The notes beneath the pieces were generated by a model, which made no database searches, was not told where the DNA came from, and saw only the letters and a list, made by a program, of their open reading frames with translations. Source: Athripsodes cinereus (lineage: Eukaryota; Arthropoda; Insecta; Trichoptera; Leptoceridae). From it: 64,000 nucleotides of DNA. Positions 1,196-44,461 of the stretch are shown in pieces. The stretch covers positions 4,960,001 through 5,024,000 of the forward strand of contig OX388310.1 of assembly GCA_947579605.1 (NCBI GenBank). The letters run 5' to 3'. The position numbers and the translations under genes were made by a program. Numbering within the stretch: the first letter of the stretch is position 1; the number at the start of each line of letters is the position of its first letter.

Positions 1196-1660
1196 CATCA
1201 TCATCGCCCTCAACGCTCCTCTCGGGAGCACAGGGCAGAAACCAGCCTCCTCCATTCAGAGCGTCTCTGTGCCAATTGCGTCACCTCTTCCCACGACATT
1301 TCTTGCGCTCTGATATCGTTGTCATAGGAACGGTGTATTGTGAAAGAGGGACGCCCGGGCCTACGGAACCCCTGCGGACGGAAGGACAGTGCTCTTTTTG
1401 GCCAACTATCATTGGGCATTCTCAAAACATGTCCCAGCCAGGACCATCGTCTCTCTTGTATTACGGAGATTACAGGTCTCTGCTGGGTGCGCCGGCGCAC
1501 AGCATCATTTGTAACATGTTCATACCATCTGACATCCAAAATCCTTCTAAGACACTTGTTTTCAAAGCTTAGTATCTTCCGCTCTTGAGCCTTGTTTTCA
1601 AAGCTTAGTATCTTCCGCTCTTGAGCCTTGTTTTCAAAGCTTAGTATCTTCCTAATAATA
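1196..1660 (-). mobile_element. LINE RT C-terminus, family a, with (GAT)n tail
   Basis: The minus-strand frame (open 1210-1887) encodes the post-RT C-terminus typical of insect non-LTR retrotransposon ORF2: a KCLRRIL segment, then RRWSWLGHVLRMP, then GFRRPGRPSFTIHRS and finally SEWRRLVSALCSREER before the stop. RT catalytic motifs are absent, so the insertion is 5'-truncated. A (GAT)n run follows the stop at 1196-1209, the usual kind of LINE 3' tail. A second, more decayed copy lies at 22693-22955. Not a host gene. Confidence 0.85.
1555..1652. repeat. 36-bp in-frame tandem triplication inside LINE family a
   Basis: A 36-bp unit starts at 1555, 1591 and 1627 (the third copy is about 26 bp long). 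On the minus strand each unit encodes the 12 residues ILSFENKAQERK. The copies are almost identical, so the expansion is younger than the insertion around it. Confidence 0.9.
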
Positions 1661-1787
1661 TGTGGGGCTAATCTACAACGCATAACAAAGATAATATTAT
1701 AATATGATCGTTTTCTTCTACATGTGTTATTTTTCTCATCCTTTATTTCGAACACGAAAATAATATTATAGTCCATCGACTCATCCG

Positions 1788-2032
1788 TACCATCATGGAA
1801 TTCCTCACAAGTAAAATAACTAGCGAACTTACTGTAACTAAAAAACATGCAAATCGTCCTCTTTGTGCCAACAAAAGTTTTAAACATTCAGTATTGTTGA
1901 CATATCTCATCGTTAAATTAAAAATGTTAAATATCTTACAGGGGGTAATTTATGATTTCCTTCACAGGACCCTCGAAAACTAACAGAAAAAAGTAAGAGA
2001 GGTACTTATTCTTTACAAGAGACTGCATGGGG
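1788..2032 (-). repeat. R-family repeat, degenerate copy
   Basis: The order of words accatcatgg, aaacatgcaaatcgtcctc, tgtgccaac, catctcatcg and aggaccctcgaaaactaaca matches the R consensus seen best at 57386-57640. Sense is defined by the conserved 3' end (ccgtgatggtat), which places this copy on the minus strand. About 245 bp, with small indels. Confidence 0.65.
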
Positions 2033-2480: not shown

Positions 2481-3266
2481 TAATGGCTGTGGGTACAAAT
2501 ACACAAACAAAAGACGGTCAAATATCGATTTTAGTAAATTGTAGTTCAGAGGTAATGTTGTTAAATTTATTATTTTGATATATGACATCTATTTTAAGGT
2601 TTTTATTATTGAATGTTCCATTTGAAATATGGTTCAGAATTTTTAACATAATTTTAACATCTCTGTTTTACATTAACTCATTTTTAATTCAAGTGTAATC
2701 TGAATATTGTATATTAATTCATAATATGAAATATTTTGAATATTCAATTTAGAAACACACGAACACACGAACGAACACATTTTTTTATTAAATGTACCAC
2801 CTACCTATATTTGAAATTCTCATCACAAGATTCTCAATTTCTCTCATTTGTTCTGATTAATTTCAGCGAAGTTGCCTCAGAAATACAATATTGATGATTC
2901 TTATTGTATTGTATTTTAATAATTGATGAAGACGAATTTTCTTACATAGGGAATGTTGAATTTATTTTATATTATTTAGACATTTATTTCAGAAATAAAA
3001 TTAAAACAGGGATAGACAATTTGCGATCTGTGGGCAGTATTCAGATGAACTAAATCATAAATATAAATATCATCGCGATATTAACTTAGAAACTTCCAAT
3101 AATTGTTTGAATAAAAAAAATATATTCGCAAAGGCCTCAACAAATCTTGGGTCAACCACTATTTTTCAGTGTTACTTTATAAGCATATTGATATGATTTT
3201 AGATGACTATGTATTAATTGTTATATTTTGTGAGCTTTTTTCGCTACCGCGGTTTCGGTGGAGCGT
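2481..3266. other. AT-rich stretch, no gene seen
   Basis: Nothing recognisable on either strand apart from short repeats such as gaacacacgaacgaacac near 2760. Confidence 0.55.
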
Positions 3267-5184: not shown

Positions 5185-5613
5185 CCATTAATACGATATC
5201 GTCCCACCAGGACGATCGCACCAAATCATTATACAAAATTATCAAAAGAGAAATTATCAAATATTTAGAAAGTATTTAAAGAAATGAATTTACATTATTT
5301 ATACATAAGAAAAGTATATAAATTGGCTCAGCCCCCAGTTTTCTATGTACAAAGCACATAGAAAACACATAGAATATAAATTATATTATATGATAGAGAA
5401 AGTATATAAAGAAAGTTACAGTTATATTTGCAAGTAAAACAGATTAATATATTGGCTCAAGTTCATGTCTAGGTATGAATCTACTTGGTCTGTAAGAGGA
5501 ATGCATTGTGTGGGTGACTGGTACATATATATACTTACATAAAGTTCAGAGAATTCCTTATCCTTTGGTTTCATCATTTTCTTATGGTCATCATATCATT
5601 ATAGAATACATAG

Positions 5614-8092
5614 TGACATAGTCTTAGTTTTTTTAACAAACTTTGTTTGAAATTGAACTAAATATATTTCGACTTACTATTTTAAGTGGTATATGGATGT
5701 ATAACTCGGAGTATATTTGTTGGTAAATAAATGGTACGTACTTCAGAGAGTACGTTATTTATTAGATAATTTTATTAGGAAGGTACATTGAATATTTTAA
5801 CACGTGACAGTGTTTAGATGATAGGAAGTAGATATTAGTACATCGGGTGAAGAAAAGTACCAAATTGAATTTTAAACAAAGAAAGTTTGTTGAACTATTA
5901 ATTGCTTTTAGGTAAGAGGTTAAATTTTGTTTATATTAATATGTTATGTAAAATTAATTTCAAGGAAAGGATTGAGAGACACGTGTGGTTGTTTACATAA
6001 AAAAGTAGATGCTTGTGCTAGGAGTGAGAGAGTGGATAATTTTGTAAGAAGGACAAAGGAATTAAGTCTATAAGATTGATGTCACAGCTCAACTCGGGGC
6101 AGTTTTGTCTAGAAATTAAGAGAGAGAGGTTAATTCTTAGAGACAGTTTTTATTTGGTAATCAAGGGAGGCAGTTTTTGCTTGTAATCAGAGGAGAGAGG
6201 TTAAATTTTAAAAGCAGTGTTGTATTCTATTTGATTATCGGTTTGTGTACATTCCTTTCTCCGAGTAATAAATATAATATTCTTTTAGTGATTATTTCCA
6301 CAATGGAAATAATGAGAATTTCATCCTAGATTTTATAATTTTACATTAAATTCAGTGTTTCGAAGCAGCGAATTTTGCAGAAAATCACCTTACTCGAAGC
6401 TAAGAAATTTTATATATTATTATTTATTTAAATTTTGTAATAGATATTTTTATCGTTACGACTTTGCCTTTCTTCTTGGAGTATCAAAACTCTTGTTTGA
6501 TAAGTCTCAAATAAGTGAAATTTCTGTAGACAAAGGATTGATGAATTTTATATAATGTTTTAATGAATATGTTTATGAGACTGTCACTGTTAATTATTTT
6601 ATTTTCCCAAATTAATAAAATTTGGATAACTAATATTATTTGTAAATTAAAATTATAGACATTACTTGATAATAAGAACAGGGACGGACTCAGAAACATA
6701 TACTAATTATTATTTTCTGATATTTTGAATTCCTAACACGAGCATGATTTTTAAGTCATATTTATTTTATGTAAATATATTTTATTTTATTATAAATTAA
6801 CATCCAACCTACCCCACCCACCTGATCGCGACCTAAAGGCACGTGATTTCCCAGCGTGAAAAGATCAAGGTTGGTGTCTGCCTTGCCTTAAGGGACACAA
6901 AAAAGCCAACCCCCGCAGATTTATACATAAATATTTATATTATTTGCATGTTATGTATTATACTCTCTTAATTTATCATATTGTATACTAATGAGGCTGA
7001 CAATAGTGTATGAAAGGCTGTGTCAGATCGAAATTTGCGTGTGTAGGAGCAAATTTCACTAACAAACCAATTTTTATTGTTATATTAACCAAAAATAGTC
7101 AGTGATTGAATTTTTGTCAAACTTTGGTTCAGTAAAATATTTCATCTCGATGCGCCCCTGGCGCTGTATACAGATACTATTTTATGTATGAAACCATATG
7201 CCTTTTATAAATGAAACTGCATTCAAAACTAATCTGTAATATAATTACAGAAATAAACTTTCGATAACGTTGAATCATAAGTTTGATAAAATATTATTTC
7301 ATTGACTATTTCTAACCAATAACATGGGTCTTCTGTAGTACAAAAAAAAAAATTATTGATTTTCGGTAATATTGTGTGTTGTTTTCTTTGTGTATTTTCA
7401 GCAATAAGGTAGGTCTTTTATACTCGCTAATGTCGAGTGTAAAAGGAAATAATTTATTAATCACTAACCTTTATGTACAACAGAAATTTAATTTTGATTG
7501 TTATAAAAAATTATGCTTTATGTGTGTTCTGAATAGAAATTATTGTTTGTTTTCACTGAATAAAATTTTCTTTTATAAATCGTAAACACAACGTAGAAAA
7601 GGGTCCTTTACGTAAATTTTCTTTTCTCTAGATGTATCATGTGCCAAAATATCTTTGAAGAAACGGAAATTGTTGAATTTAGCGACCGAAACTTTTGACG
7701 GGTTTTACGTTAAACGTCTAAGACAACTTAAATTAGGTGTGAACCGAGATAGGTTAAACTAATGATACGTATTATTATATAGGTATAATGTCTCTATACG
7801 ACGAATATTATTACTCTTGGTTTTTACAAGTAGGTAGGTGATATGAAAGTATTCTGTATTATAAAATTTTAATCGGAATATTATAAAGACGTAATTGCGA
7901 AAAGAAATTTATAAATTTGCGTAGATTGGATAAACTCGATTCTTTTAGTTTAATTACTTCCAACTCAGAGGATAAATACGTATTTATTCTCTCGTCGAAA
8001 TAAATAAATATATTTTATTTATTTCCTGTCAATGTGGTTCTCAACGAAGAGCTTTTCTTTTTCCTTCCTTTTTGAGGGTGGGGACCACGACA
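5614..8092. mobile_element. Nested 2.48-kb TG...CA insertion (possible solo LTR)
   Basis: Relative to the uninterrupted LTR-X copies, 2,479 bp are inserted here. The insert begins TGACATAGTC and ends CCACGACA, and is flanked by ATAG at 5610-5613 and 8093-8096. The other LTR-X copies have the single-copy target (atatataggtaa). TG...CA ends with a 4-bp duplication fit an LTR. An AATAAA-like gagtaataaatataat sits near 6260, next to gagagaggttaa-type imperfect repeats (6110-6220). No second LTR and no gag or pol frame was found, so it is either a long solo LTR or a non-autonomous element. Confidence 0.7.
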
Positions 8093-8358
8093 ATAGGTAA
8101 TTCAAGCAATAATGTTTCTTCTGTTAGCATACTTTATATTGCAAAGATTCTACTTATATCTTTTCTTGAGTAGAATTATAGATATATATATCCATATAAA
8201 CAATCAAAAATTTATGTCAAGTGGAACAAAGATTATCATAAGTACATCATATCCTTCCTATTAAGTGGATATTTTATTTCCATCAATGGAGCCATTCATT
8301 TAGCTCTTTGTTGTCTTCATAGTGAAGTAATAGGGTCTTCCAGTCTTTGGTTGGTCAA

Positions 8359-8399
8359 GGATCGAACCTTGGCGTCTTATCTACTCCAAGTATAAACTA
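8359..8399 (-). promoter_or_regulatory. tRNA-like Pol III box pair inside the LTR-X sequence
   Basis: On the minus strand an A-box-like tagtttatacttgg is followed about 20 bp on by a B-box-like ggttcgatcc. The pair is conserved in the other LTRs (32388-32430 with ggttcgattcc, and 38063-38105). It may be a SINE head captured by the LTR. Activity is unknown. Confidence 0.4.
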
Positions 8400-10159
8400 G
8401 GTTATGGAAAGATTAAATACAAGGAGGCGAAGAGATGCACTTTGACATGATTAAGAGTATTGAATCTACTTGTAGGTACATATAATGGATTTCAACAGAA
8501 AGATAACGTATGGTAAGTGATTCACATTTATTGTGCAAATACATATTACATAACAAGACAGTTGCTTTCAAAGTAAATTTGTAGGGAATAATATTCCGCA
8601 CAATATGCAAAATTATGACAGTTCTACCATATTCGGATTGAGATAATAAAACAAACAATGGTAATTATCAAATAAACCAACCTCGGTATTATATACATAC
8701 ATCAATACCTGGTTTACCATATAATCTAAAAGTTAAATTGAACCATTCATTCTTCATTCAATCTCAAAATCTTAAATTAGTACACAAAGGAAGGTAATAT
8801 ATAAAATAGTTCCATGATAATATGAATTCTGTTATGGAAAAAATATCATTATATACAATATACAATAGCAATATAGTCACTTACAGATGAACAGGCGAGC
8901 TGTTGTTGAATAACACAAAGCCGAGTATATTACTGATGAAGTATTGTGTACACTTTGACAGTAGAAGGCAGAATCGTGAAAGAAACATACTCCAACGTCT
9001 CTATGGCGGTCGCTGGTCATACCAAAGACGTACAGGGATGTGTAGGTGGTGCCAGAATCTGATAGATTCTGTCCTCAGGACGGAAGAGATCACTACTTCT
9101 CAAGAGGCATGAGAAATCTTATACGTTCCTACACCTTCCTCAGTGTATGAGGTTGAAGGCGTCACTGTCTCAATAGTCTGTCCAAGCATATACGGCTTGT
9201 CGTTTAATCACTCTCATAACAAGGGTCGCGACCAGAAAAGTTAAGAGAGGATTATCAAGTTCACATAGGAATGAGTGTTACATCGGTAAACCACCGATAC
9301 GCAATACACAGACTACCCGCGTTGAAGAGGTATTCGTTGCAGACTTCGGAACACATTCATGTTTTTAATTAGATTTATAATACTGAGCAAGAAGATAGAA
9401 TAGTTTATGTGATGTTTTATGATTCCTAACATTGAATATTTGTTCAGAAACAATGGATTATCACACTTCACACGGTTATGTAGAATGGCGGGAACAGCAA
9501 GACCACGCCCAAACGAACATATGCTACATTACTCAAAACCTCCAAATGTTATCTGTATATCACCTCAATAATCGTAATCTATATAACTCAAAGGAAACAC
9601 AAGCCTGTTCATAACACTATTCTGTTTATTGATTACTATTGATTATTAATCATTATTATTGTACCCTGATATGGGCGGTAAGATTGGTCGCGCGCGTAAT
9701 AACTAACACAGATTTTTAAAGTACATTATTAACGACACACAATAAGAATAGTTTTACGTACAATAGAGGGCAACACACTTGTTTATCACATTATGAAGTT
9801 AAGTACTATTAAATAATTATCGTTAGTATTATTATTGTGTCGGAGCTACACACAAGGCGGTTCGCAACCAAGGCGGGGAAGGGACAACCCCTTCCTTCGT
9901 CCAACCTATGCCATGGTTTGCGGGTAACTGATTTCAAAAAGACGCGTTCTATTCAACAAACCGTTGGTCCTAACGAATTAAGTGCCGAGTGCAAGTACGG
10001 GGTTCACACAGATGCCTTCGAGACGTCACGTGACATCGGATGATTTCCATAACGTTCGATTATTATTATTATTATGGATGACTCATGGACAACAAATGAC
10101 TGTAGGAACATTAGCCAGTATGAACTTCTCCGCAGCGATTATTTAATGCGTAGCACCAT

Positions 10160-31689: not shown

Positions 31690-31693
31690 GATG

Positions 31694-34120
31694 TAACACG
31701 ATATCGTCCCACTAGGACGATCGCATCATATCATTATACAAAATTATCAAAAGAGAAATTATCAAATATTTAGAAAGAAAAGAATTTTCATTATTTATAC
31801 GTAAGAAAAGTATATAATTTGGCTCAGCCCCCAGTTTTCTATGTACAAAGCACATAGAAAACACATAGAATATAAATTATATGATAAAGAAAGTATATAA
31901 AGAAAGTTACAGTTATATTTGCAAGTAAAACAGATTAATATATTGGCTCAAGTTCATGTCTAGGTATGAATCTACTTGGTCTGCAAGAGGAATGCATTGT
32001 GTGGGTGACAGGTACATACTTCAATTATACATATTATACTTACATAAAGTTCAGAGAATTCCTTATCCTTCGGTTTCATCATTTTCTTATGGTCATCATA
32101 TCATTACTACAGAATATATATAGGTAATTTAAGCAATAATGTTTCTTCTGTTAGCATACTTTATATTGCAAAGATTCTACTTATATCTTTTCTGGAGTAG
32201 AATTATAGATATATATATATCCATATAAACAATCAAAAATTCATGTCAAGTGGAACAGAGATTATCCTAAGTACATCATATCATTCCTATAAAGTGGATA
32301 TTTTATTTCCATCAATGGAGCCATTCATTTAGCTCTTTGTTGCCTTCATAGTGAAATAATATGGTCCTTCATCCATTGGTTGGTCAAGGAATCGAACCTT
32401 GGTTACATAACTACTCCAAGTATAAACTAGGTTATTGGAAGATTATATACAAGGAGGCGAAGAGATGTACTTTAGTATGATTAAGAGTATTAAATCTACT
32501 TATAGGTATATAAAATGGATTTCAACAGAAAGATATCGTATGGTAAGTGATTCACATTTATTGTGCAAATATATATTATATAACAAGACAGTTGCTTTCA
32601 AAGTAAATTTGTAGGGAATAATATTCCGCACAATATGCAAAATTATGAAAGCACTACCATATTAGGATTGAGATAATAAAACAAACAATGGTAATTATCA
32701 AATAAACCAACCTCGGTATCATATACATACATCAATACCTGGTTTACCATATAATCTAAAAATTAAATTGAACCATTCATTCTTCATTCAATCTCAAAAT
32801 CTTAAATTAGTACACAAAGGAAGGTAATATATAAAATAGTTCAATGATAATATGAATTCTGTTATGGAAAAAATATCATTATATACAATATACAATAGCA
32901 ATATAGTCACTTACAGATGAACAGGCGAGCTGTTGTTGAATAACACAAAGCCGAGTATATTACTGATGAAGTATTGTGTACACTTTGACGGTATAAGGCA
33001 GAATCGTGAAAGAAGCATACTCTACGTCTCTATGGCGGTCGCTGGTCATACCAAAGACGTACAGGGGTGTGTAGGTGGTGTCAGAATCTGATAGATTCTG
33101 TCCTCAGGACGGAAGAGATCACTACTTCTCAAGAGGCATGAGAAATCTTATACGTTCTTACACCTTCCTCAGTGTATAAGGTTGAAGGCGTCACAGTCTC
33201 AATAGTCTGTCCAAGCATATACGGCTTGTCGTTTAATCACTCTCATAACAAGGGTCGTGACCAGAAAAGTTAAGAGAGGATTATCAAGTTCACATAGAAA
33301 TGAGTGTTACATCGGTAAACCACCGATACGCAATACACAGACTACCCGCGTTGAAGAGGTATTCGTTGCAGACTTCGGAACACATTCATGTTTTAAATAA
33401 ATTTATAATACTGAGCAAGTAGAAAGAATAGTTTATGCGCTTTTTTTATGATTCCTATCATTGAATAATGCCCGAACGAACATAAATGCTACATTACTCA
33501 AAACCTCCAAATGTTATCTTTATATCACCACAATAATCGTAATCTATATAACTCAAAGGAAACACAAGCCTGTTCATAACACTATTCTGTTTATCGATTA
33601 CTATTGATTATTAAACATTATTATCGTACCCTGATATGGGCGGTAAGATTGGTCGCGCGCGTAATAGCTAACACAGATTTTTAAAGTACATTATTAACGA
33701 CACACAATAAGAATAGTTTTACGTACAATAGAGGGCAACACACTTGTTTATCACATTATGAAGTTAAGTACTATTAAATAATTATCGTTAGTATTATTAT
33801 TGTGTCGGAGCTACACACAAGGCGGTTCGCAACCAAGGCGGGGAAGGGACAACCCCTTCCTTCGTCCAACCTATGCCATGGTTTGCGGGTAACTCATTTC
33901 AAAAAGACACTTTCCATTCAACAAACCGTTGGTCCTAACGAATTAAGTGCCGAGTGCAAGTACGGGGTTCACACAGATGCCTTCGAGAAGTCACGTGACA
34001 TCGGATGATTTCCATAACGTTCGATTATTATTATTATTATGGATGACTCATGGACAACAAATGACTGTAGGAACATTAGCCAGTATGAACTTCTCCGCAG
34101 CGATTATTTAATGCGTAGCA
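31694..34120 (-). repeat. 3' LTR of the LTR-X element (copy B)
   Basis: Starts TGCTACGCATT on the minus strand and ends cgatatcgtgtta. Compared by eye with copy C it is almost identical from about 31780 to 34120. It lacks 66 bp near 33477 that both C and the solo LTR keep, and shows four substitutions, all in the part nearest 34120. The last 85 or so bases of U5 (31694-31778) are clearly diverged from C. Confidence 0.8.
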
Positions 34121-34145
34121 TTCTCCCTTTCGGCCCCTCTTGAAA
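34121..34145 (-). promoter_or_regulatory. Polypurine tract of LTR-X
   Basis: On the minus strand the bases directly before the 3' LTR read aagaggggccgaaagggaga followed by one a. A purine-rich run abutting the TG of the LTR is the expected plus-strand primer site. Confidence 0.7.
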
Positions 34146-37100
34146 ATTTGAAGAGAAGCGACAAATTTTCAAGTTCCCCAATTGTACAAAAAAAAGTTGA
34201 GAATCACTACAAAAAATTGTTGATAACCACTGGTTACATGAAAAGATTGAATACCACTGGTTACATAAAGAATTGAGTACCACTGGTTACATAAGCAGTT
34301 ATATAGGTACACAAACAATTACAAACAAACAATTCAAAATGGTGGCTTATATACTATTACAATGTTTCTTACATCCTATAGCCCGTTCAATTATTATTAT
34401 TAAGCACTCGCGGTAAATTGCCCATAGTCAAAATTGATGCGAACTGTTTTCATATTTTGACTTACACTTCTTAATAATAACACAAAATTCACATTGGTTG
34501 TTTTAGTATGGGGCTCCTATCAAAAGTCTGATAGCTACAATCATAACAATATAATAGTACATAGAGGTGTGCATATATATAGACAGGTGCATATGTGCAT
34601 GTATATGAAAAACACAGGTTATAAAAACAACAACTTTAAACATTTTACAATACAATTTTACAAGAAACTCAGGATCTGTAATACGTTTCAATATACGGTT
34701 CGTTCTACATTGGCGATAAAATTATTCTCTTCAATTTATCAATATACGTACGTTTCATTGCTGGATTCTTTTGCTACGATCGACGACAAGTTAACATTTT
34801 AAACATGACAAACATATAAAACAAAAGTTACGTACTTAAGAAGTTGGTTTACATCATTTTCGATTCCGGTTTCATGTATCCGGCAAGCCATTGGAAAAGT
34901 AACATAAAGGAATTTAAATAAATATAAACAATTTTGTATAGATGGAATTAGAGATACTACATTTACGCTTCATTTAACCCATTAAGCTTAATAGCACTCA
35001 TATACAAGTGATTTCATGTACCATGTACCATACAAAGATATTGGCAAAGCACAGAAAGAAATCATACATAATAAGGACACATACATATTAGAAAAACAAT
35101 TTACACGCAGACATGACATAATGGTAAATCACGACGACTGCAATCACATTTACAGTAACCGATATTCATTATTGGCGTCAAATCCTTCTACGCATATTAC
35201 ATACGACACAGTTCTCACACAGAGACAGATTTCTCACACAGAGATAATCTCAGAGGGAGCTACCCTCACACAGGCTTAATACATGACAAATACATTGAAC
35301 AACTTTCGATCTTTGCTACACAATATACAAGTTACAAGTTCAATAAATTCTTTACATACATCATTATTCAAATTCAACATTAACTTCTTCATTCAGGGCT
35401 CACCTTTCATAAACAGATTCATACATCATCTTTATTCACTAACATACAATTAATCAAAATTATCCCATTGAATATCTGCAGCCAACATTCCACTACAGGT
35501 TTTATTCTGTGTCCTTCATAAGCCATTCCCGTTCAATGTCAAAATGTTCTATCACATTTTCCAATGTATTCAAGCAACATAAACAAATTTTCCACAAAGT
35601 CACAAAAATTATTTAATTCAACAAGGATATACTACATCCAAACATTTCCAATTACAATTCATAAGAGATCACTACGTGTCCTACGCGGAATTAAACGTCA
35701 TATAAACTCAAACTTCAAAATAATAGGCATGAACGATTAGCAATCACATTGTCTACATTCATCAAAAAGAGCTTCACGATTTATCTTTCACACATCCAGA
35801 TAACATCGTCTCTATATCGATTACACAAAAAGTCACAAAAAAAAGTATTTAACACATCTCTCCTACCACGGCTTTACATATTACATAAACATAACTCATT
35901 TTTTATCAAAGAGCGTTCGTTAGTTTACCTTAACGGGACAATTCACTAAACGGACTCAGTTCTCCAATAAACAAGGCATTGGTTACTTCAATATATCACG
36001 ATGATAATAAGCCGCAAAAGTCACATTATTACATTTCAAGAAAATTAGTTACTCCACAAAAGATAACAAATTCCGTACACGAAGGGTTAATATTCAACAG
36101 CAAAAATTCTACATCGTTACATGGTTACTTCTTTAATTTCCAAAAAAAATTTACAAAACATCATTCTATTATTTACGTTAATGTCAAAATTTTCAACGAT
36201 GGTCATCAAAGGGTTAACTGTTTCTTAACTAAATTAAAAAATTCAGTTACAGTTCACATATACTTGACATTAAAAAAAATTCAATTATTATTTACAAAGG
36301 GTTAACAAATTCGGTCATGTTTCACTAAGGGTTAAGTGTATTTATTTTTCAAATTTCGTGAACGGTCGTGAAGGTTTAACATTATTTGTTTCGATTTATT
36401 TTTAACTTTAATTTTCTTAAAACAAAAATATTTATTTAATATTATTCATCACTATTATTTCGTCACATCACTACGTACGCACATTTATATTCTTATCAAA
36501 ATTCTACTACGCATAATCTTACACAACAACGCTCATTTAATATTATTTCTCCAAGAGTTCAATAAAGATATTTACTCCAAATGCAACATTTAACTGTTTC
36601 AAAAAATTTAATTCAATTTTATATTTACTATGTATATCGATTTTTACTTTCATCGTTTGAAAATGAATTTACTATTAAAATAACATTACAACAAAATATA
36701 TGTTTACCGGCAAAGTTCTTTGTACACTTTGGTTTACTATACATACTACAGTATGGGTAGGCACATATTTCGTTTCGTTCCAATATTATTATTTTCAACT
36801 ATACATTTTACTAATATTTTGGACTTCCCGATTTGTGTGTTCATACTACTATTATGTTGAGGTATGTTGTATACTGTCCTTTTCTCTCGCGACGCATAGG
36901 TACGTACATACTATGCTGTGTTTTATTTCTTAATAACGGACTTCTCCCTACGAACGGAATAATTTACACTATTTTAAAAACTGATTGCACACAATTGTGT
37001 TCTGCATACGCGCTCTCGATGGAACATACTACATGTTGTATAGGTAGGTATGTATACTGCGGTATAATAATATTATCGGTCTCTACTGATAACAGTCTTT

Positions 37101-37294
37101 TTTTATTTTACGATTCCTGTTTCATTTTTAAAATTGTTTTCATATACATACACACATTAAAATCATTACATTTTCAATTAATATCAATACACATTATTAC
37201 ACAATAAAGATAAGAATTCTGAACTTCACGATTAGGCATATTCACCACACAATACATTTAAAATTTTCGGGCCAACAACTATGCGAGTTGTACG

Positions 37295-37313
37295 ATCCAG
37301 GACGAGCTGCCCA
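37295..37313 (-). promoter_or_regulatory. tRNA-Pro-like primer binding site, downstream copy
   Basis: On the minus strand TGGGCAGCTCGTCCTGGAT resembles the proline-tRNA primer site (TGGGGGCTCGTCCGGGAT) known from many retroelements, with one extra base and a few changes. It follows a second copy of the LTR-end word acgtatca, 52 bp inside the true LTR edge. Confidence 0.55.
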
Positions 37314-37341
37314 AAATGATACGTCATCGTTCGCCCACATT

Positions 37342-37368
37342 GCTACATCCAACGGACGAGCACACAAA
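37342..37368 (-). promoter_or_regulatory. tRNA-Pro-like primer binding site, LTR-adjacent copy
   Basis: Directly after the LTR end (cgtatca) the minus strand reads tttgtgtgctcgtccgttgg, a weaker match to the same primer site. Its position next to the LTR is what a primer site needs. Confidence 0.5.
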
Positions 37369-39859
37369 TGATACGATTTCGTCCCACCGGGACGCTCGCA
37401 TTAAATGATCTACATAGTTATTTAAAAGGAAATATCCAATATTATATAAGAAAAGAATTTTCATTATTTATACGTAAGAAAAGTATATAATTTGGCTCAG
37501 CCCCCAGTTTTCTATGTACAAAGCACATAGAAAACACATAGAATATAAATTATATGATAAAGAAAGTATATAAAGAAAGTTACAGTTATATTTGCAAGTA
37601 AAACAGATTAATATATTGGCTCAAGTTCATGTCTAGGTATGAATCTACTTGGTCTGCAAGAGGAATGCATTGTGTGGGTGACAGGTACATACTTCAATTA
37701 TACATATTATACTTACATAAAGTTCAGAGAATTCCTTATCCTTCGGTTTCATCATTTTCTTATGGTCATCATATCATTACTACAGAATATATATAGGTAA
37801 TTTAAGCAATAATGTTTCTTCTGTTAGCATACTTTATATTGCAAAGATTCTACTTATATCTTTTCTGGAGTAGAATTATAGATATATATATATCCATATA
37901 AACAATCAAAAATTCATGTCAAGTGGAACAGAGATTATCCTAAGTACATCATATCATTCCTATAAAGTGGATATTTTATTTCCATCAATGGAGCCATTCA
38001 TTTAGCTCTTTGTTGCCTTCATAGTGAAATAATATGGTCCTTCATCCATTGGTTGGTCAAGGAATCGAACCTTGGTTACATAACTACTCCAAGTATAAAC
38101 TAGGTTATTGGAAGATTATATACAAGGAGGCGAAGAGATGTACTTTAGTATGATTAAGAGTATTAAATCTACTTATAGGTATATAAAATGGATTTCAACA
38201 GAAAGATATCGTATGGTAAGTGATTCACATTTATTGTGCAAATATATATTATATAACAAGACAGTTGCTTTCAAAGTAAATTTGTAGGGAATAATATTCC
38301 GCACAATATGCAAAATTATGAAAGCACTACCATATTAGGATTGAGATAATAAAACAAACAATGGTAATTATCAAATAAACCAACCTCGGTATCATATACA
38401 TACATCAATACCTGGTTTACCATATAATCTAAAAATTAAATTGAACCATTCATTCTTCATTCAATCTCAAAATCTTAAATTAGTACACAAAGGAAGGTAA
38501 TATATAAAATAGTTCAATGATAATATGAATTCTGTTATGGAAAAAATATCATTATATACAATATACAATAGCAATATAGTCACTTACAGATGAACAGGCG
38601 AGCTGTTGTTGAATAACACAAAGCCGAGTATATTACTGATGAAGTATTGTGTACACTTTGACGGTATAAGGCAGAATCGTGAAAGAAGCATACTCTACGT
38701 CTCTATGGCGGTCGCTGGTCATACCAAAGACGTACAGGGGTGTGTAGGTGGTGTCAGAATCTGATAGATTCTGTCCTCAGGACGGAAGAGATCACTACTT
38801 CTCAAGAGGCATGAGAAATCTTATACGTTCTTACACCTTCCTCAGTGTATAAGGTTGAAGGCGTCACAGTCTCAATAGTCTGTCCAAGCATATACGGCTT
38901 GTCGTTTAATCACTCTCATAACAAGGGTCGTGACCAGAAAAGTTAAGAGAGGATTATCAAGTTCACATAGAAATGAGTGTTACATCGGTAAACCACCGAT
39001 ACGCAATACACAGACTACCCGCGTTGAAGAGGTATTCGTTGCAGACTTCGGAACACATTCATGTTTTAAATAAATTTATAATACTGAGCAAGTAGAAAGA
39101 ATAGTTTATGCGCTTTTTTTATGATTCCTATCATTGAATAATTGTTCAGAAACAATGGATTATCACACTTCACACGGTTATGTAGAATGGCGGTAACAGC
39201 AAAACCACGCCCAAACGAACATAAATGCTACATTACTCAAAACCTCCAAATGTTATCTTTATATCACCACAATAATCGTAATCTATATAACTCAAAGGAA
39301 ACACAAGCCTGTTCATAACACTATTCTGTTTATCGATTACTATTGATTATTAAACATTATTATCGTACCCTGATATGGGCGGTAAGATTGGTCGCGCGCG
39401 TAATAGCTAACACAGATTTTTAAAGAACATTATTAACGGCACACAATAAGAATAGTTTTACGTACAATAGAGGGCAACACACTTGTTTATCACATTATGA
39501 AGTTAAGTACTATTAAATAATTATCGTTAGTATTATTATTGTGTCGGAGCTACACACAAGGCGGTTCGCAACCAAGGCGGGGAAGGGACAACCCCTTCCT
39601 TCGTCCAACCTATGCCATGGTTTGCGGGTAACTCATTTCAAAAAGACGCTTTCCATTCAACAAACCGTTGGTCCTAACGAATTAATTGCCGAGTGCAAGT
39701 ACGGGGTTCACACAGATGCCTTCGAGAAGTCACGTGACATCGGATGATTTCCATAACGTTCGATTATTATTATTATTATGGATGACTCATGGACAACAAA
39801 TGACTGTAGGAACATTAGCCAGTATGAACTTCTCCGCAGCGATTATTTAATGCGTAGCA
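37369..39859 (-). repeat. 5' LTR of the LTR-X element (copy C)
   Basis: Minus-strand TGCTACGCATT...cgtatca, so it has canonical TG...CA ends. Length 2,491 bp. It keeps the 66-bp segment lost from copy B (about 39143-39208). Its first 85 or so window bases (37369-37453) differ from copies A and B while the rest is nearly identical to B, so it is mosaic. Confidence 0.8.
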
Positions 39860-39979
39860 GATGTCTGATAAATACCTACTGTTTATTTTATTTTGTTTAG
39901 GCGCATGTCAATTTTTTACATTTAGCAGTTGAAACGGAGTAAATAAAAAAATAAACGACACCTAAAAATTTTGTAGTAC

Positions 39980-40454
39980 TAATTATAAATAAAATATTTA
40001 TTTACAGTATATCCACAGTGACTTTTTATTGGACGCGAGCCGGCTTTCAAGAGCTTCCGCTCTCATCATCAGGCTGGCAAAAAGTAAAGAAATTACAAGT
40101 TGGTAACGAATATAATATTATATAGTATGTTATTGGATATGAAAACAAAAGTGGTGATCAAGACAGTGGTAACAAACAATTGAAATAGAGTACCGTTGTG
40201 GACAGATTTTTAGAAAAACATCTCCAGCATTTGCCTTTTAACGATATTGGGGAAACCACAAAAACCCATATCAGAAATGATCATTATTTTTTTAAGAGGT
40301 AGCCCTTCTCGGAAAGTAGGTATACATAAAATGTGAATCTACTTAATATAATATTGTTTTTTTTCTCTCTTTTTGAAAGATCTCTTGAGAGCCGGCTCGT
40401 GTCATAAAAAATCACTGTGGATATACTATAAATAAGTGTTTTATTTATAATTTA
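39980..40454. mobile_element. Foldback DNA element (475 bp, long TIRs)
   Basis: Left arm aattataaataaaatattta, cagtatatccacagtga and gacgcgagccggctttcaag; right arm ctcttgagagccggctcgtg, atcactgtggatatact and ttttatttataatt. The arms are inverted copies of about 75 bp with small differences. The core has no ORF. It lies 120 bp from the LTR-X element. Confidence 0.8.
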
Positions 40455-42435: not shown

Positions 42436-44461
42436 TATATTTTATTTATTTTTATTTTATTTATTATTTACTCCAGACTTGAAGGTGGAGTGTGCAAACC
42501 TCTCAAGTCCATATTAAAATACATACAATATAATACAAATGATAAAAAAATAATACATATTAGAGTAGAAATAAGTAGAAAGAAGATCATACTAAACTGG
42601 TATAGGTTCAATATACCTACAGACTTTCTTAATTAATTAAATATGCAATCCACCTTTGTGTCAGTTGTTGTTCTTGTCTTTCGGAAGCAGCTCGTAAAAG
42701 TTCGTTATTTATTAATGTTAGTCGTGTCCTAAAACCGTGAATTTTCAGTCTCATTGTCGCCCTAAAGTCATTTGTCCTACCTTCTGTAAACATGTGTGAT
42801 GCACTAGTGTATCTACGATGTCCAAATAGTATACGGTATGCGTCATTGTATTGTACCCTTAATTTGTTTATTGTAGTCAGTCTGTAGTTCGTCCATAGTT
42901 GGCATGTGTAAAGGTTTGTACAGTAGGCATTAAATAGCATTCTCTTAACACTGTCACTACACTTGAAAAAAGTCCTGGCGAGCATGTTTGAGATAATACT
43001 AATGTTTCGTCTTTGTCTTTCGATATCGTCATCGTCAGTAAGGTCACTATTAATAATATGTCCTAAGTATTTGACTCTATTTGTTTGCGTGAGATTTGTA
43101 TTGTCGATGTCTACTGGCAGTACTTTTTCTTCTTCTTTACCCCATTTGAAAATCATTAATTCTGTCTTCTTTGCATTATATTTCATGTTGTGATGGATTG
43201 CATATTTTTCGCAGATTTTCAGCAGTTTTCTCAATCCTTTGATTGATGGGGCTAAAAGAACCATGTCATCAGCGTAGCTTACGTGGTTCGATGGTAGACT
43301 TCCAAGGTGACATCCGGTTTTAGAAGTATTTAGCTGCTGACTCAGTCCATCCATATATACGTTGAATAGAACTGGAGATAAGCATCCTCCCTGTCTCACT
43401 CCAGTTCTTAAATACATAGGATTGGACACTTGGTTATTCCATTTAACCACGTTCTCTTGATACGTATGCCAGCGATTGAGTAGATTTACAACTTTAGCTG
43501 GCACTCCTCTTTTCTGCAATTTCTCCCAGAGGATTTCATGAGACACCTTATCAAAAGCTTTGCTGAGATCTAAAAAGCATGCGTACACGGTTGTTCTTCG
43601 CTTTCGATATCTTTCTACAATCTGCTTCACGGTATATATCGCTGTCTCCGTTGACACTTCAGGTTTGAATCCCATTTGATTTTCCTCTGTACTAAGATTG
43701 TGTTTAATCTTTTCCAATAATATTTTCTCGAGAATTCTTGCTACTATTGTTGTCAATGATATTGGCCTATAATTACTAGAGGATGTCATGTCTAGTTGTG
43801 GTGATTTTGGAATAGGTATAATAATTGTTTTCGTCATATTTTCTGGGAGATGATTATGTGATATAATCAGATTAAAGAGTCTAGTTAAAATTTGTTTACA
43901 CCGAAAACCTGCATATTTTATATGTTCTATACCTAAACTGTCATGACCAGGTGCCTTTCCTGATTTTATTGACACAATAGATGTTTCCACTTCCTTTTCA
44001 CTTATTATTACATCACAATTATCTGAAGGATATTCGATATATTTGTTTGGTATGTCACTACCTGAAATTTCACTAAAGATGTGTTTAAAGTTGTTCGATA
44101 TATCTTTTTCATTCGTATAACCATCTATTCTACCCGTATTTCTTTTTGTCGGCTTCAGAAGTCTATTACTTTTTATCCAGAATTTTTTAAATTGTTTATT
44201 GGTGGCATTCATAGCAATATCATCAAATATTTTTTGGTCACGTGTTTGTTGAGCTGACTTTAATGATTTTTTGAACTCTTTCCTATAGTATCGTCTCTCG
44301 TCAGCTGCAGTTCCGTCTTTTGGTCTTCCGTGTTGAATCCAGTTTTCAAGAGCTTTCTTAGAGCGTTGATAGTGTTCAGAAACTAGACTGTTCCATCCAG
44401 TTTTTTGGTATTTTGTAATTGATTTCCATTCATTCTCTTTATCTTTATAAACTACATAGTT
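42436..44461 (-). mobile_element. 5'-truncated non-LTR retrotransposon with RT
   Basis: The element holds a long open ORF2 (42629-44461), a roughly 150-bp 3' UTR and a tail made of aaat and aaaat units (42436-42475 on the plus strand as tttatt words). The frame stops being open exactly at tga (44462-44464), so the upstream endonuclease part is missing, as in a TPRT 5' truncation. A weak tttcat match at 42420 and 44460 could be the target duplication. Confidence 0.8.
42629..44461 (-). CDS. Non-LTR RT (ORF2, partial: linker, RT, C-terminus)
   Basis: Reverse transcriptase copying the element RNA at a nicked chromosomal target. The frame is open for about 610 codons; the ATG at 44210-44212 gives 527 residues, but a typical ORF2 linker (LENWIQHGRPKD, ERRYYRKEFKKS) continues upstream, so that ATG is not the true start. 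Counted from it: SGKAPGHD 84-91, NYRPISL 147-153, GFKPEVST 181-188, motif A FLDLSKAFD 213-221, GVRQGGCLSP 271-280, motif C YADD 313-316, KKTELM 348-353. All catalytic aspartates are present. No RNase H. The 5' endonuclease domain is lost, so this copy is immobile, though it has no internal stop or shift and is probably young. The clade looks CR1/Rex1-like, unproven. Confidence 0.9.
   Translation of the reverse strand, partial: NYVVYKDKENEWKSITKYQKTGWNSLVSEHYQRSKKALENWIQHGRPKDGTAADERRYYRKEFKKSLKSAQQTRDQKIFDDIAMNATNKQFKKFWIKSNRLLKPTKRNTGRIDGYTNEKDISNNFKHIFSEISGSDIPNKYIEYPSDNCDVIISEKEVETSIVSIKSGKAPGHDSLGIEHIKYAGFRCKQILTRLFNLIISHNHLPENMTKTIIIPIPKSPQLDMTSSSNYRPISLTTIVARILEKILLEKIKHNLSTEENQMGFKPEVSTETAIYTVKQIVERYRKRRTTVYACFLDLSKAFDKVSHEILWEKLQKRGVPAKVVNLLNRWHTYQENVVKWNNQVSNPMYLRTGVRQGGCLSPVLFNVYMDGLSQQLNTSKTGCHLGSLPSNHVSYADDMVLLAPSIKGLRKLLKICEKYAIHHNMKYNAKKTELMIFKWGKEEEKVLPVDIDNTNLTQTNRVKYLGHIINSDLTDDDDIERQRRNISIISNMLARTFFKCSDSVKRMLFNAYCTNLYTCQLWTNYRLTTINKLRVQYNDAYRILFGHRRYTSASHMFTEGRTNDFRATMRLKIHGFRTRLTLINNELLRAASERQEQQLTQRWIAYLIN

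What the first reader, a model, noticed from the sequence alone, without database searches (positions are those of the whole stretch)
31690..39863. LARD-like LTR retrotransposon with 2.4-2.5 kb LTRs and no coding capacity
Seen: two long direct repeats, identical GATG at the outer flanks, a purine tract against one LTR and tRNA-Pro-like primer words against the other, all agreeing on minus-strand orientation. The 3.25-kb interior has no gag-pol. Known: large non-coding LTR derivatives (LARDs) are best described from plants. Inference: an insect analogue, mobilised in trans by an unknown partner, and recent because the LTRs are nearly identical.
Basis: partly seen in the sequence, partly recalled or inferred. 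Interest (0 to 1): 0.8.

Follow-up and report, generated by a model that had tools for sequence, protein, structure and literature searches.

The report
Non-coding LTR retrotransposon (LARD) in a moth
This is a real, recently active jumping element of a moth or butterfly genome that keeps the control sequences needed for copying but carries no genes, so it probably borrows proteins from another element, and many of its copies show an unusual series of primer sites at the end of the repeat.

Summary
Two LTRs (31694-34120, 37369-39859, minus orientation) flank a 3,248-bp interior without coding signal, between exact GATG duplications, with a polypurine tract and tRNA-Pro-like primer sites in place. 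It belongs to a large family: 690 exact LTR starts genome-wide, reversed control 0; among the first 100 listed, 38 same-strand neighbours lie 5.27-6.24 kb apart. Seven copies share the interior, its best block 96.8% identical against 89.5% for LTRs. Six sister LTR pairs differ by 0-2 substitutions. Four sister copies carry a primer site exactly complementary to this genome's own tRNA-Pro. So: a LARD-type non-autonomous LTR retrotransposon. LARDs are already annotated in insects, including a moth. Unusual is the LTR end: in 16 of 24 copies a decayed primer site lies 48-58 bp upstream of the next, often inside the LTR, and in 4 of 16 copies with exact target duplications the LTR ends differ. In the window, 21 of 26 LTR substitutions lie in the last 81 columns, distorting a naive age. 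No helper was found; the searches for it did not complete.

The parts
31690..31693 (.). target site duplication GATG, left
   Evidence: identical to 39860-39863
31694..34120 (-). 3' LTR, 2,427 bp; lacks a 66-bp segment that the 5' LTR and 27 further distinct LTRs have; outer end of the commoner 'alpha' type
34121..34140 (-). polypurine tract AGAGGGGCCGAAAGGGAGAA
   Evidence: same tract before the 3' LTR in L009, L010, L011, L013, L014, L015 and L030, L031; not in L012, whose 3' LTR lacks its first 38 bp
34121..37368 (-). interior, 3,248 bp, no coding signal; the other 39 scored genome places match at 91-94% over their main piece
37295..37313 (-). primer-binding-site type B (TGGGCAGCTCGTCCTGGAT)
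37317..37368 (-). 52-bp module: decayed tRNA-Pro-like site plus a copy of the LTR end; in 10 sister copies this kind of module is part of the 3' LTR too
37349..37366 (-). primer-binding-site type A, decayed (TGTGTGCTCGTCCG...)
37369..39859 (-). 5' LTR, 2,491 bp; end of the rarer 'beta' type (nearest L012, L028)
39860..39863 (.). target site duplication GATG, right
5189..10155 (-). second family member in the window: solo LTR with target duplication CCAT, split by a 2,480-bp insertion (5613-8092)

Best explanation
It is one copy of a large, young, non-autonomous LTR retrotransposon family of the LARD type in a lepidopteran genome. Shown from sequence: LTRs, 4-bp target duplication, PPT, a PBS exactly complementary to the genome's own tRNA-Pro in four sister copies, an interior without coding signal shared by sisters, very young sister LTR pairs, solo LTRs and one tandem array. 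Inferred: the RNA starts in the 5' LTR, is packaged and copied in trans by proteins of an autonomous element (probably Ty3/Gypsy-like, by the 4-bp duplication), is primed by tRNA-Pro, and is inserted by that element's integrase. Also inferred, with less certainty: duplication of an [LTR end + PBS] cassette moved the working primer site inward, so older sites decayed and often became part of the LTR; and strand transfer between two different packaged RNAs gave copies whose two LTRs end differently.
For: Structure and TSD. Family: 690 exact LTR starts, control 0; 38 of 44 same-strand neighbour pairs under 20 kb are 5,271-6,239 bp apart, median 5,826, no opposite-strand neighbours under 20 kb (first 100 of 690). 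Same interior in L009-L015 and in the other 39 scored places (731 candidates, 40 scored). Young: 2, 1, 0, 1, 2, 2 substitutions between the LTRs of L009-L014 (indels and trimmed end bases not counted, L011 and the array L014/L015 have one more end-base difference). TSDs: 14 of 14 solo LTRs; of 19 full-length copies 16 exact, 2 with 3 of 4 letters, 1 none. No coding: of the three longest frames, two have stops in 6 of 6 sisters and one in 3 of 6; non-synonymous exceed synonymous changes in 18 of 18 comparisons; no Pfam family at its cutoff in 9 frames of the element. Primer: five ARAGORN tRNA-Pro genes in L089-L091 end ATCCCGGACGAGCC + C; with the added CCA (general knowledge) the complement is TGGGGGCTCGTCCGGGAT, found in L039, L048, L051, L072, 4 of 88 loci.
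Against: No helper element was found, so trans-mobilisation is untested; the searches for one by its PPT (first) and by the exact PBS (first) did not complete. The window copy's own PBS sites are imperfect. One of 19 full-length copies (C7, 1.04 Mb) shows no matching target duplication. The Gypsy assignment rests on TSD length alone. The interior shows no excess of RNA structure, so folding does not support a packaging role. The 96.8% block was chosen after seeing the profile; whole interiors are 91.8-97.0% identical, and for one pair (L011-L012) the whole interior is less alike than the LTRs (92.7 against 93.7%).
Confidence: 0.88

Rival explanations
1. A decayed autonomous Gypsy-like element that lost its genes by mutation or deletion after insertion.
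For: LTR, PBS, PPT and 4-bp TSD are those of an autonomous family; such remnants are common (general knowledge).
Against: The gene-less interior is the same in sister copies that inserted recently, so the loss preceded their amplification; 38 of 44 neighbour pairs have about the same spacing.
Confidence: 0.04
2. The mosaic LTR ends arose after insertion by gene conversion from other family members, not by strand transfer during reverse transcription.
For: Hundreds of donor LTRs exist; PMC9744471 (passages) names gene conversion and template switching as alternatives. For three of the four mosaic copies (C13, C17, C1 18.8 Mb) I fetched only the LTR ends, so differences elsewhere in their LTRs would have been missed.
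Against: In the window copy, where whole LTRs were compared, 21 of 26 substitutions lie in the last 81 columns next to the PBS; in all four the different end sits beside a primer site, where strand transfer acts; target duplications are intact.
Confidence: 0.35
3. The repeats belong to a satellite-like array or a larger DNA transposon, not to a retrotransposon.
For: One array LTR-interior-LTR-interior-LTR exists on C3.
Against: That array is itself flanked by one 4-bp duplication, ATAT; 14 of 14 solo LTRs have exact TSDs; PPT and an exact tRNA-Pro PBS in sisters.
Confidence: 0.02
4. The interior encodes short antisense proteins.
For: Antisense stop-to-stop frames of 113-130 codons exist; one 94-codon frame has a weak, sub-cutoff Pfam match to DHR-2 lobe B, E 8e-4.
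Against: Two of the three longest frames have stops in 6 of 6 sisters, the third in 3 of 6, and changes are mainly non-synonymous; no DOCK chain among PDB matches of the 94-codon frame.
Confidence: 0.03

Closest known systems
LARDs of grasses (Sukkula; named in PMC7215508, passages seen; original description recalled)
   Same: Gene-less LTR element with a core domain, assumed trans-complementation.
   Different: Different host kingdom; serial primer-site modules at the LTR end; no RNA-structure excess detected here, whereas PMC7215508 says LARDs and TRIMs specify well-conserved RNA structures.
Non-coding LTR families of Culex quinquefasciatus, cqUNK (PMC3286476, passages seen)
   Same: Insect; LTRs over 98% identical, PBS, PPT, TSD, no coding sequence, no master copy found.
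   Different: In the four table rows seen whole, LTRs are 208-315 bp and the TSDs given are 5 bp; all carry internal tandem repeats according to the paper. This one has 2.4-kb LTRs, 4-bp TSDs and only short tandem repeats in the interior.
cqgypsy_1, Osvaldo lineage (PMC3286476, passages seen)
   Same: Atypical primer-site region with a duplicated 26-nt piece of the 5' LTR; its Osvaldo relatives conserve about 30 nt across the LTR/PBS boundary.
   Different: There two tRNA copies are inserted; here the module is a second PBS plus an LTR end, often inside both LTRs, in an element without genes.
Helenus and Ajax TRIMs (PMC10886601, abstract and passages seen)
   Same: Non-autonomous, PBS and PPT; animal Helenus makes 4-bp TSDs and shares PBS regions with Gypsy elements.
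   Different: TRIMs with a tRNA or 5S rRNA sequence in the LTR; no tRNA or Rfam match in this window.
LARD classes annotated in honeybee (PMC4028053) and yellow stem borer moth (PMC10923946), passages seen
   Same: Same label in insects; 3.10% of the bee and 8.84% of the moth genome.
   Different: Annotation categories; no element anatomy was in the passages seen.
Cereba/Quinta and Wilma/Sabrina/WHAM of wheat (PMC11302176, PMC9744471, passages seen)
   Same: Model for non-autonomous elements using a helper with the same PBS and LTR ends, with template switching or conversion between lineages.
   Different: Helper known or proposed there; not identified here.

Membership tests
LARD (large retrotransposon derivative) | Two LTRs with matching target site duplication | tested here: met
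LARD (large retrotransposon derivative) | PBS next to the 5' LTR and PPT next to the 3' LTR | tested here: met
   PPT; PBS exact to own tRNA-Pro in 4 sister copies; imperfect in the window copy
LARD (large retrotransposon derivative) | Long interior with no gag, pol or other coding capacity | tested here: met
   no frame of 150 or more codons in the interior
LARD (large retrotransposon derivative) | Interior conserved across the family | tested here: met
   7 copies: whole interior 91.8-97.0%; 2.4-kb block, chosen after the profile, 96.1-97.6% in 21 pairs
LARD (large retrotransposon derivative) | Conserved RNA secondary structure (stated for LARDs in PMC7215508; not part of the anatomical definition as I recall it) | tested here: inconclusive
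   mean z 0.19 over 31 windows of the sense interior, 1 below -2; covariation not tested
LARD (large retrotransposon derivative) | Mobilised in trans by an autonomous element | not tested
   helper searches by PPT and exact PBS did not complete
Ty3/Gypsy superfamily (as helper type) | 4-bp TSD (usual in animal Gypsy; partly recalled) | tested here: met
   14 of 14 solo LTRs
Ty3/Gypsy superfamily (as helper type) | Gypsy-type pol in the element | tested here: not met
   no pol in this element; membership in Gypsy is not claimed, only a helper of that kind is proposed
TRIM | Very short LTRs and interior | tested here: not met
   LTR 2.4-2.5 kb, interior 3.25 kb

The most novel reading that the evidence does not exclude
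The family's LTRs grow by serial inward relocation of the primer site: an [LTR end + PBS] cassette is duplicated, the inner copy is used, the outer copy decays and becomes part of the LTR. Because sister RNAs carry different cassettes (exact, A, B, C, D), a new copy can take its two LTR ends from two different parents, which would let a gene-less element shuffle its primer and integrase ends and perhaps switch helpers, while selection holds a 2.4-kb non-coding interior block that diverges about a third as much as the LTRs.
Probability: 0.3. Interest if true: 0.7.

Novelty: new variant of a known kind. Interest (0 to 1): 0.5.

Why it matters
It is a recently active animal LARD family whose gene-less interior has a block far better conserved than its LTRs, so it makes the old question of what a non-coding retrotransposon interior is for testable in an insect. 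The ladder of primer sites looks like a readable record of how LTR ends and primer sites evolve. Its mosaic ends warn that LTR-divergence dating can be off several-fold: in the window copy 0.0108 for the whole LTR against 0.0021 without the last 81 columns.

Tried and rejected
Autonomous helper with the same LTR: looked for among odd spacings of LTR starts. Of six odd spacings four were fetched in part: L030 and L031 are this element with nested insertions; L029 holds this interior up to position 3,053, and the rest of that 13.5-kb span was not fetched; L032 is an LTR start without PPT, so not the 3' LTR of its neighbour, probably a solo LTR. The other two (C1 3.85-3.86 Mb) were not fetched. 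A helper with a different LTR but the same PPT or PBS: searches did not complete.

RNA structure in the interior: no excess over dinucleotide shuffles. Rfam: no match in the window. tRNA genes in the window or in loci L009-L032: none. Coding in the interior: rejected. Literature: searches for duplicated primer sites or LTR extension gave nothing directly on point in their listings (one gave the two wheat papers); the others gave the papers cited or nothing further used. Most subscription papers are not held, so absence from print is not claimed.

Full report
What is there. The window lies on contig C6 of a 716-Mb genome in 160 contigs. Every species named among the 120 listed relatives (of 1,526) of the LINE frame at 42629-44461 is lepidopteran, so the host is very likely a moth or butterfly. 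Two direct repeats, 31694-34120 and 37369-39859, flank a 3,248-bp interior. Read on the minus strand, the 5' LTR runs TGCTACGC...ATCGTATCA; the 3' LTR ends ATCGTGTTA. GATG lies at both outer edges. Directly before the 3' LTR is AGAGGGGCCGAAAGGGAGAA, a polypurine tract; after the 5' LTR are two tRNA-Pro-like sites.

It is a family. A genome search with the LTR gave 92 matches from the 40 of 1,264 candidates scored, with the interior 93 matches from 40 of 731 candidates. The exact 20-nt LTR start occurs 690 times, the reversed control 0 times. In the first 100 listed places (C1 to C3), 44 same-strand neighbours lie within 20 kb; 38 of these are 5,271-6,239 bp apart, median 5,826; no opposite-strand neighbours lie within 20 kb; 15 starts are unpaired. 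Extrapolated, that is about 260 full-length copies with an exact LTR start, an estimate and not a count. Of the six odd spacings four were fetched in part: L030 and L031 are this element with a nested insertion, L029 holds this interior up to query position 3,053 with the rest of the 13.5-kb span unread, L032 is an LTR start without PPT.

Anatomy of copies. L009-L013 are full-length sisters; L014 and L015 overlap and together are an array LTR-interior-LTR-interior-LTR on C3, flanked as a whole by ATAT. L016-L028 are 13 solo LTRs; with the window's own solo LTR (5189-10155, CCAT) 14 of 14 have exact 4-bp duplications. Of 26 full-length copies whose ends were fetched or meant to be (window, L009-L013, the array, 7, 12), 19 had both flanks readable: 16 exact, 2 with three of four letters (C1 26.2 and 30.9 Mb), 1 without a match (C7). 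Seven were not readable with the pieces fetched: C12, C16, C19, C1 6.75 and 8.75, C2 24.9 and 33.8 Mb. Flanks and ends were read, in part by eye.

Age. LTR pairs of L009-L014 differ by 2, 1, 0, 1, 2, 2 substitutions (indels not counted: L012 has gaps of 14 and 38 columns, and L011 and the array one further end base each). The window pair differs by 26 in 2,425 compared columns, K2P 0.0108, but 21 of the 26 lie in the last 81 columns (P about 4e-27). Without these columns K2P is 0.0021. At a recalled rate of 2.9e-9 per site and generation that is about 0.37 million generations, against 1.9 million for the naive figure. The 66 bp missing from the 3' LTR are present in the 5' LTR and in 27 further distinct LTRs (28 matches, one LTR lying in both L014 and L015), so this is a deletion.

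No genes. The interior has no frame of 150 or more codons. The three longest (antisense, 113-130 codons) change more non-synonymously than synonymously in 18 of 18 comparisons; two carry stops in 6 of 6 sisters, the third in 3 of 6. Nine frames of the element have no Pfam family at its cutoff; one weak DHR-2 lobe B match (E 8e-4) is not backed by a DOCK chain in the PDB search. Yet part of the interior is well conserved: over 21 pairs of seven copies a 2.4-kb block averages 96.8%, against 89.5% for the LTRs and 87.6% for the PBS-proximal alignment kilobase. The block was chosen after seeing the profile; whole interiors are 91.8-97.0%. Sense-strand folding shows no excess over shuffles. Conservation could mean a cis-acting role or frequent exchange between sisters; I cannot separate these.

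Primer site. Among 14 recalled tRNA ends, tRNA-Pro fits all five primer-site variants tested best. ARAGORN finds five tRNA-Pro genes in three loci of this genome, ending ATCCCGGACGAGCC followed by C (17 exact places of the pattern). With the added CCA the complement is TGGGGGCTCGTCCGGGAT. Exactly these 18 nt stand in 4 of the 88 loci then held: L039, L048, L051, L072, in each case 2-3 nt after the point where 5' and 3' LTR stop matching; a target duplication confirms that point in two (L048 AGTA, L072 AGGC), is not matched in one (C7) and was not read in one (C12). Other copies have variants B, C or D there. In 16 of the 24 copies in which such a site was recognised, a decayed variant A stands 48-58 bp upstream; the other 8 lack it. 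In 10 of those 16, A is also in the 3' LTR; in the window and C17 it is not; in 4 the 3' LTR end was not read. Three of 13 solo LTRs (L016, L022, L026) carry it with the target duplication after it. In L048 three sites stand in a row, A, exact, B, and the 3' LTR ends right before the exact one. The simplest reading is repeated duplication of an LTR-end/PBS cassette with inward relocation of priming. This is inference.

Unequal LTR ends. Of the 16 copies with exact duplications, 10 have identical LTR ends, 2 differ by one end base (L011, the array), and 4 differ more: the window (5' LTR end nearest L012 and L028, 3' LTR of the common type), C13 8.75 Mb (last 25-30 bp), C17 9.6 Mb (3' LTR ends one cassette earlier) and C1 18.8 Mb (four end columns and one at -23). 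For the last three only the LTR ends were fetched. Ends from two parents are what strand transfer between two different packaged RNAs predicts; gene conversion after insertion is the rival and is not excluded.

How it most likely works. Transcription from the 5' LTR, packaging by a helper's Gag, tRNA-Pro priming, PPT-primed plus strand, integration with 4-bp staggering by a helper integrase. Only the signals are shown; proteins and helper are inferred. Animal non-autonomous elements with 4-bp duplications have been linked to Gypsy (PMC10886601, passages), hence my guess of a Gypsy-like helper.

Relation to known things. It meets the anatomical features of LARDs. LARDs are in print for insects: one LARD-like element and 38 gene-less LTR families in Culex (PMC3286476, passages), a LARD row of 3.10% of the honeybee genome (PMC4028053, passages), 8.84% of a moth genome (PMC10923946, passages). 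So this is a new family of a known kind, with an LTR-end arrangement that resembles, but is not, the tRNA-dimer primer site of cqgypsy_1. Searches for that arrangement in print listed nothing directly on point; the library lacks most subscription papers.

Noticed in passing
window 5189-10155: Solo LTR of the same family (TSD CCAT), split by a 2,480-bp insertion at 5613-8092 whose longest frame is 79 codons.
   Followed up: partly
window 42629-44461 (-): 610-codon LINE-type reverse transcriptase frame (RVT_1, E 8e-42); named relatives are lepidopteran.
   Followed up: partly
window 39981-40452: Inverted repeat, 49-nt arms 92% complementary, 374 nt apart, just outside the 5' LTR; looks like a small TIR element.
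   Followed up: no
window 34995-35276 (+): Antisense 94-codon frame in the interior with a weak, sub-cutoff Pfam match to DOCK DHR-2 lobe B; possibly chance, possibly a captured exon fragment.
   Followed up: partly
G000:C3:26814700-26829600 (L014, L015): Tandem array of LTR-interior-LTR-interior-LTR flanked as a whole by ATAT, as from unequal crossing-over.
   Followed up: partly
L031:3809-4600: 264-codon open frame resembling a Tc1/mariner-type transposase (by eye), apparently inserted in the 5' LTR of a sister copy.
   Followed up: no
window 1210-1887 (-): 225-codon frame with a sub-cutoff match to TEP1_N (E 4e-5).
   Followed up: no
G000:C2:11501198-11507692 (L075, L076): A copy with a third LTR end type (...GACGTAGCA, TSD CCAG) and primer-site type D, yet the same LTR start.
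   Followed up: partly
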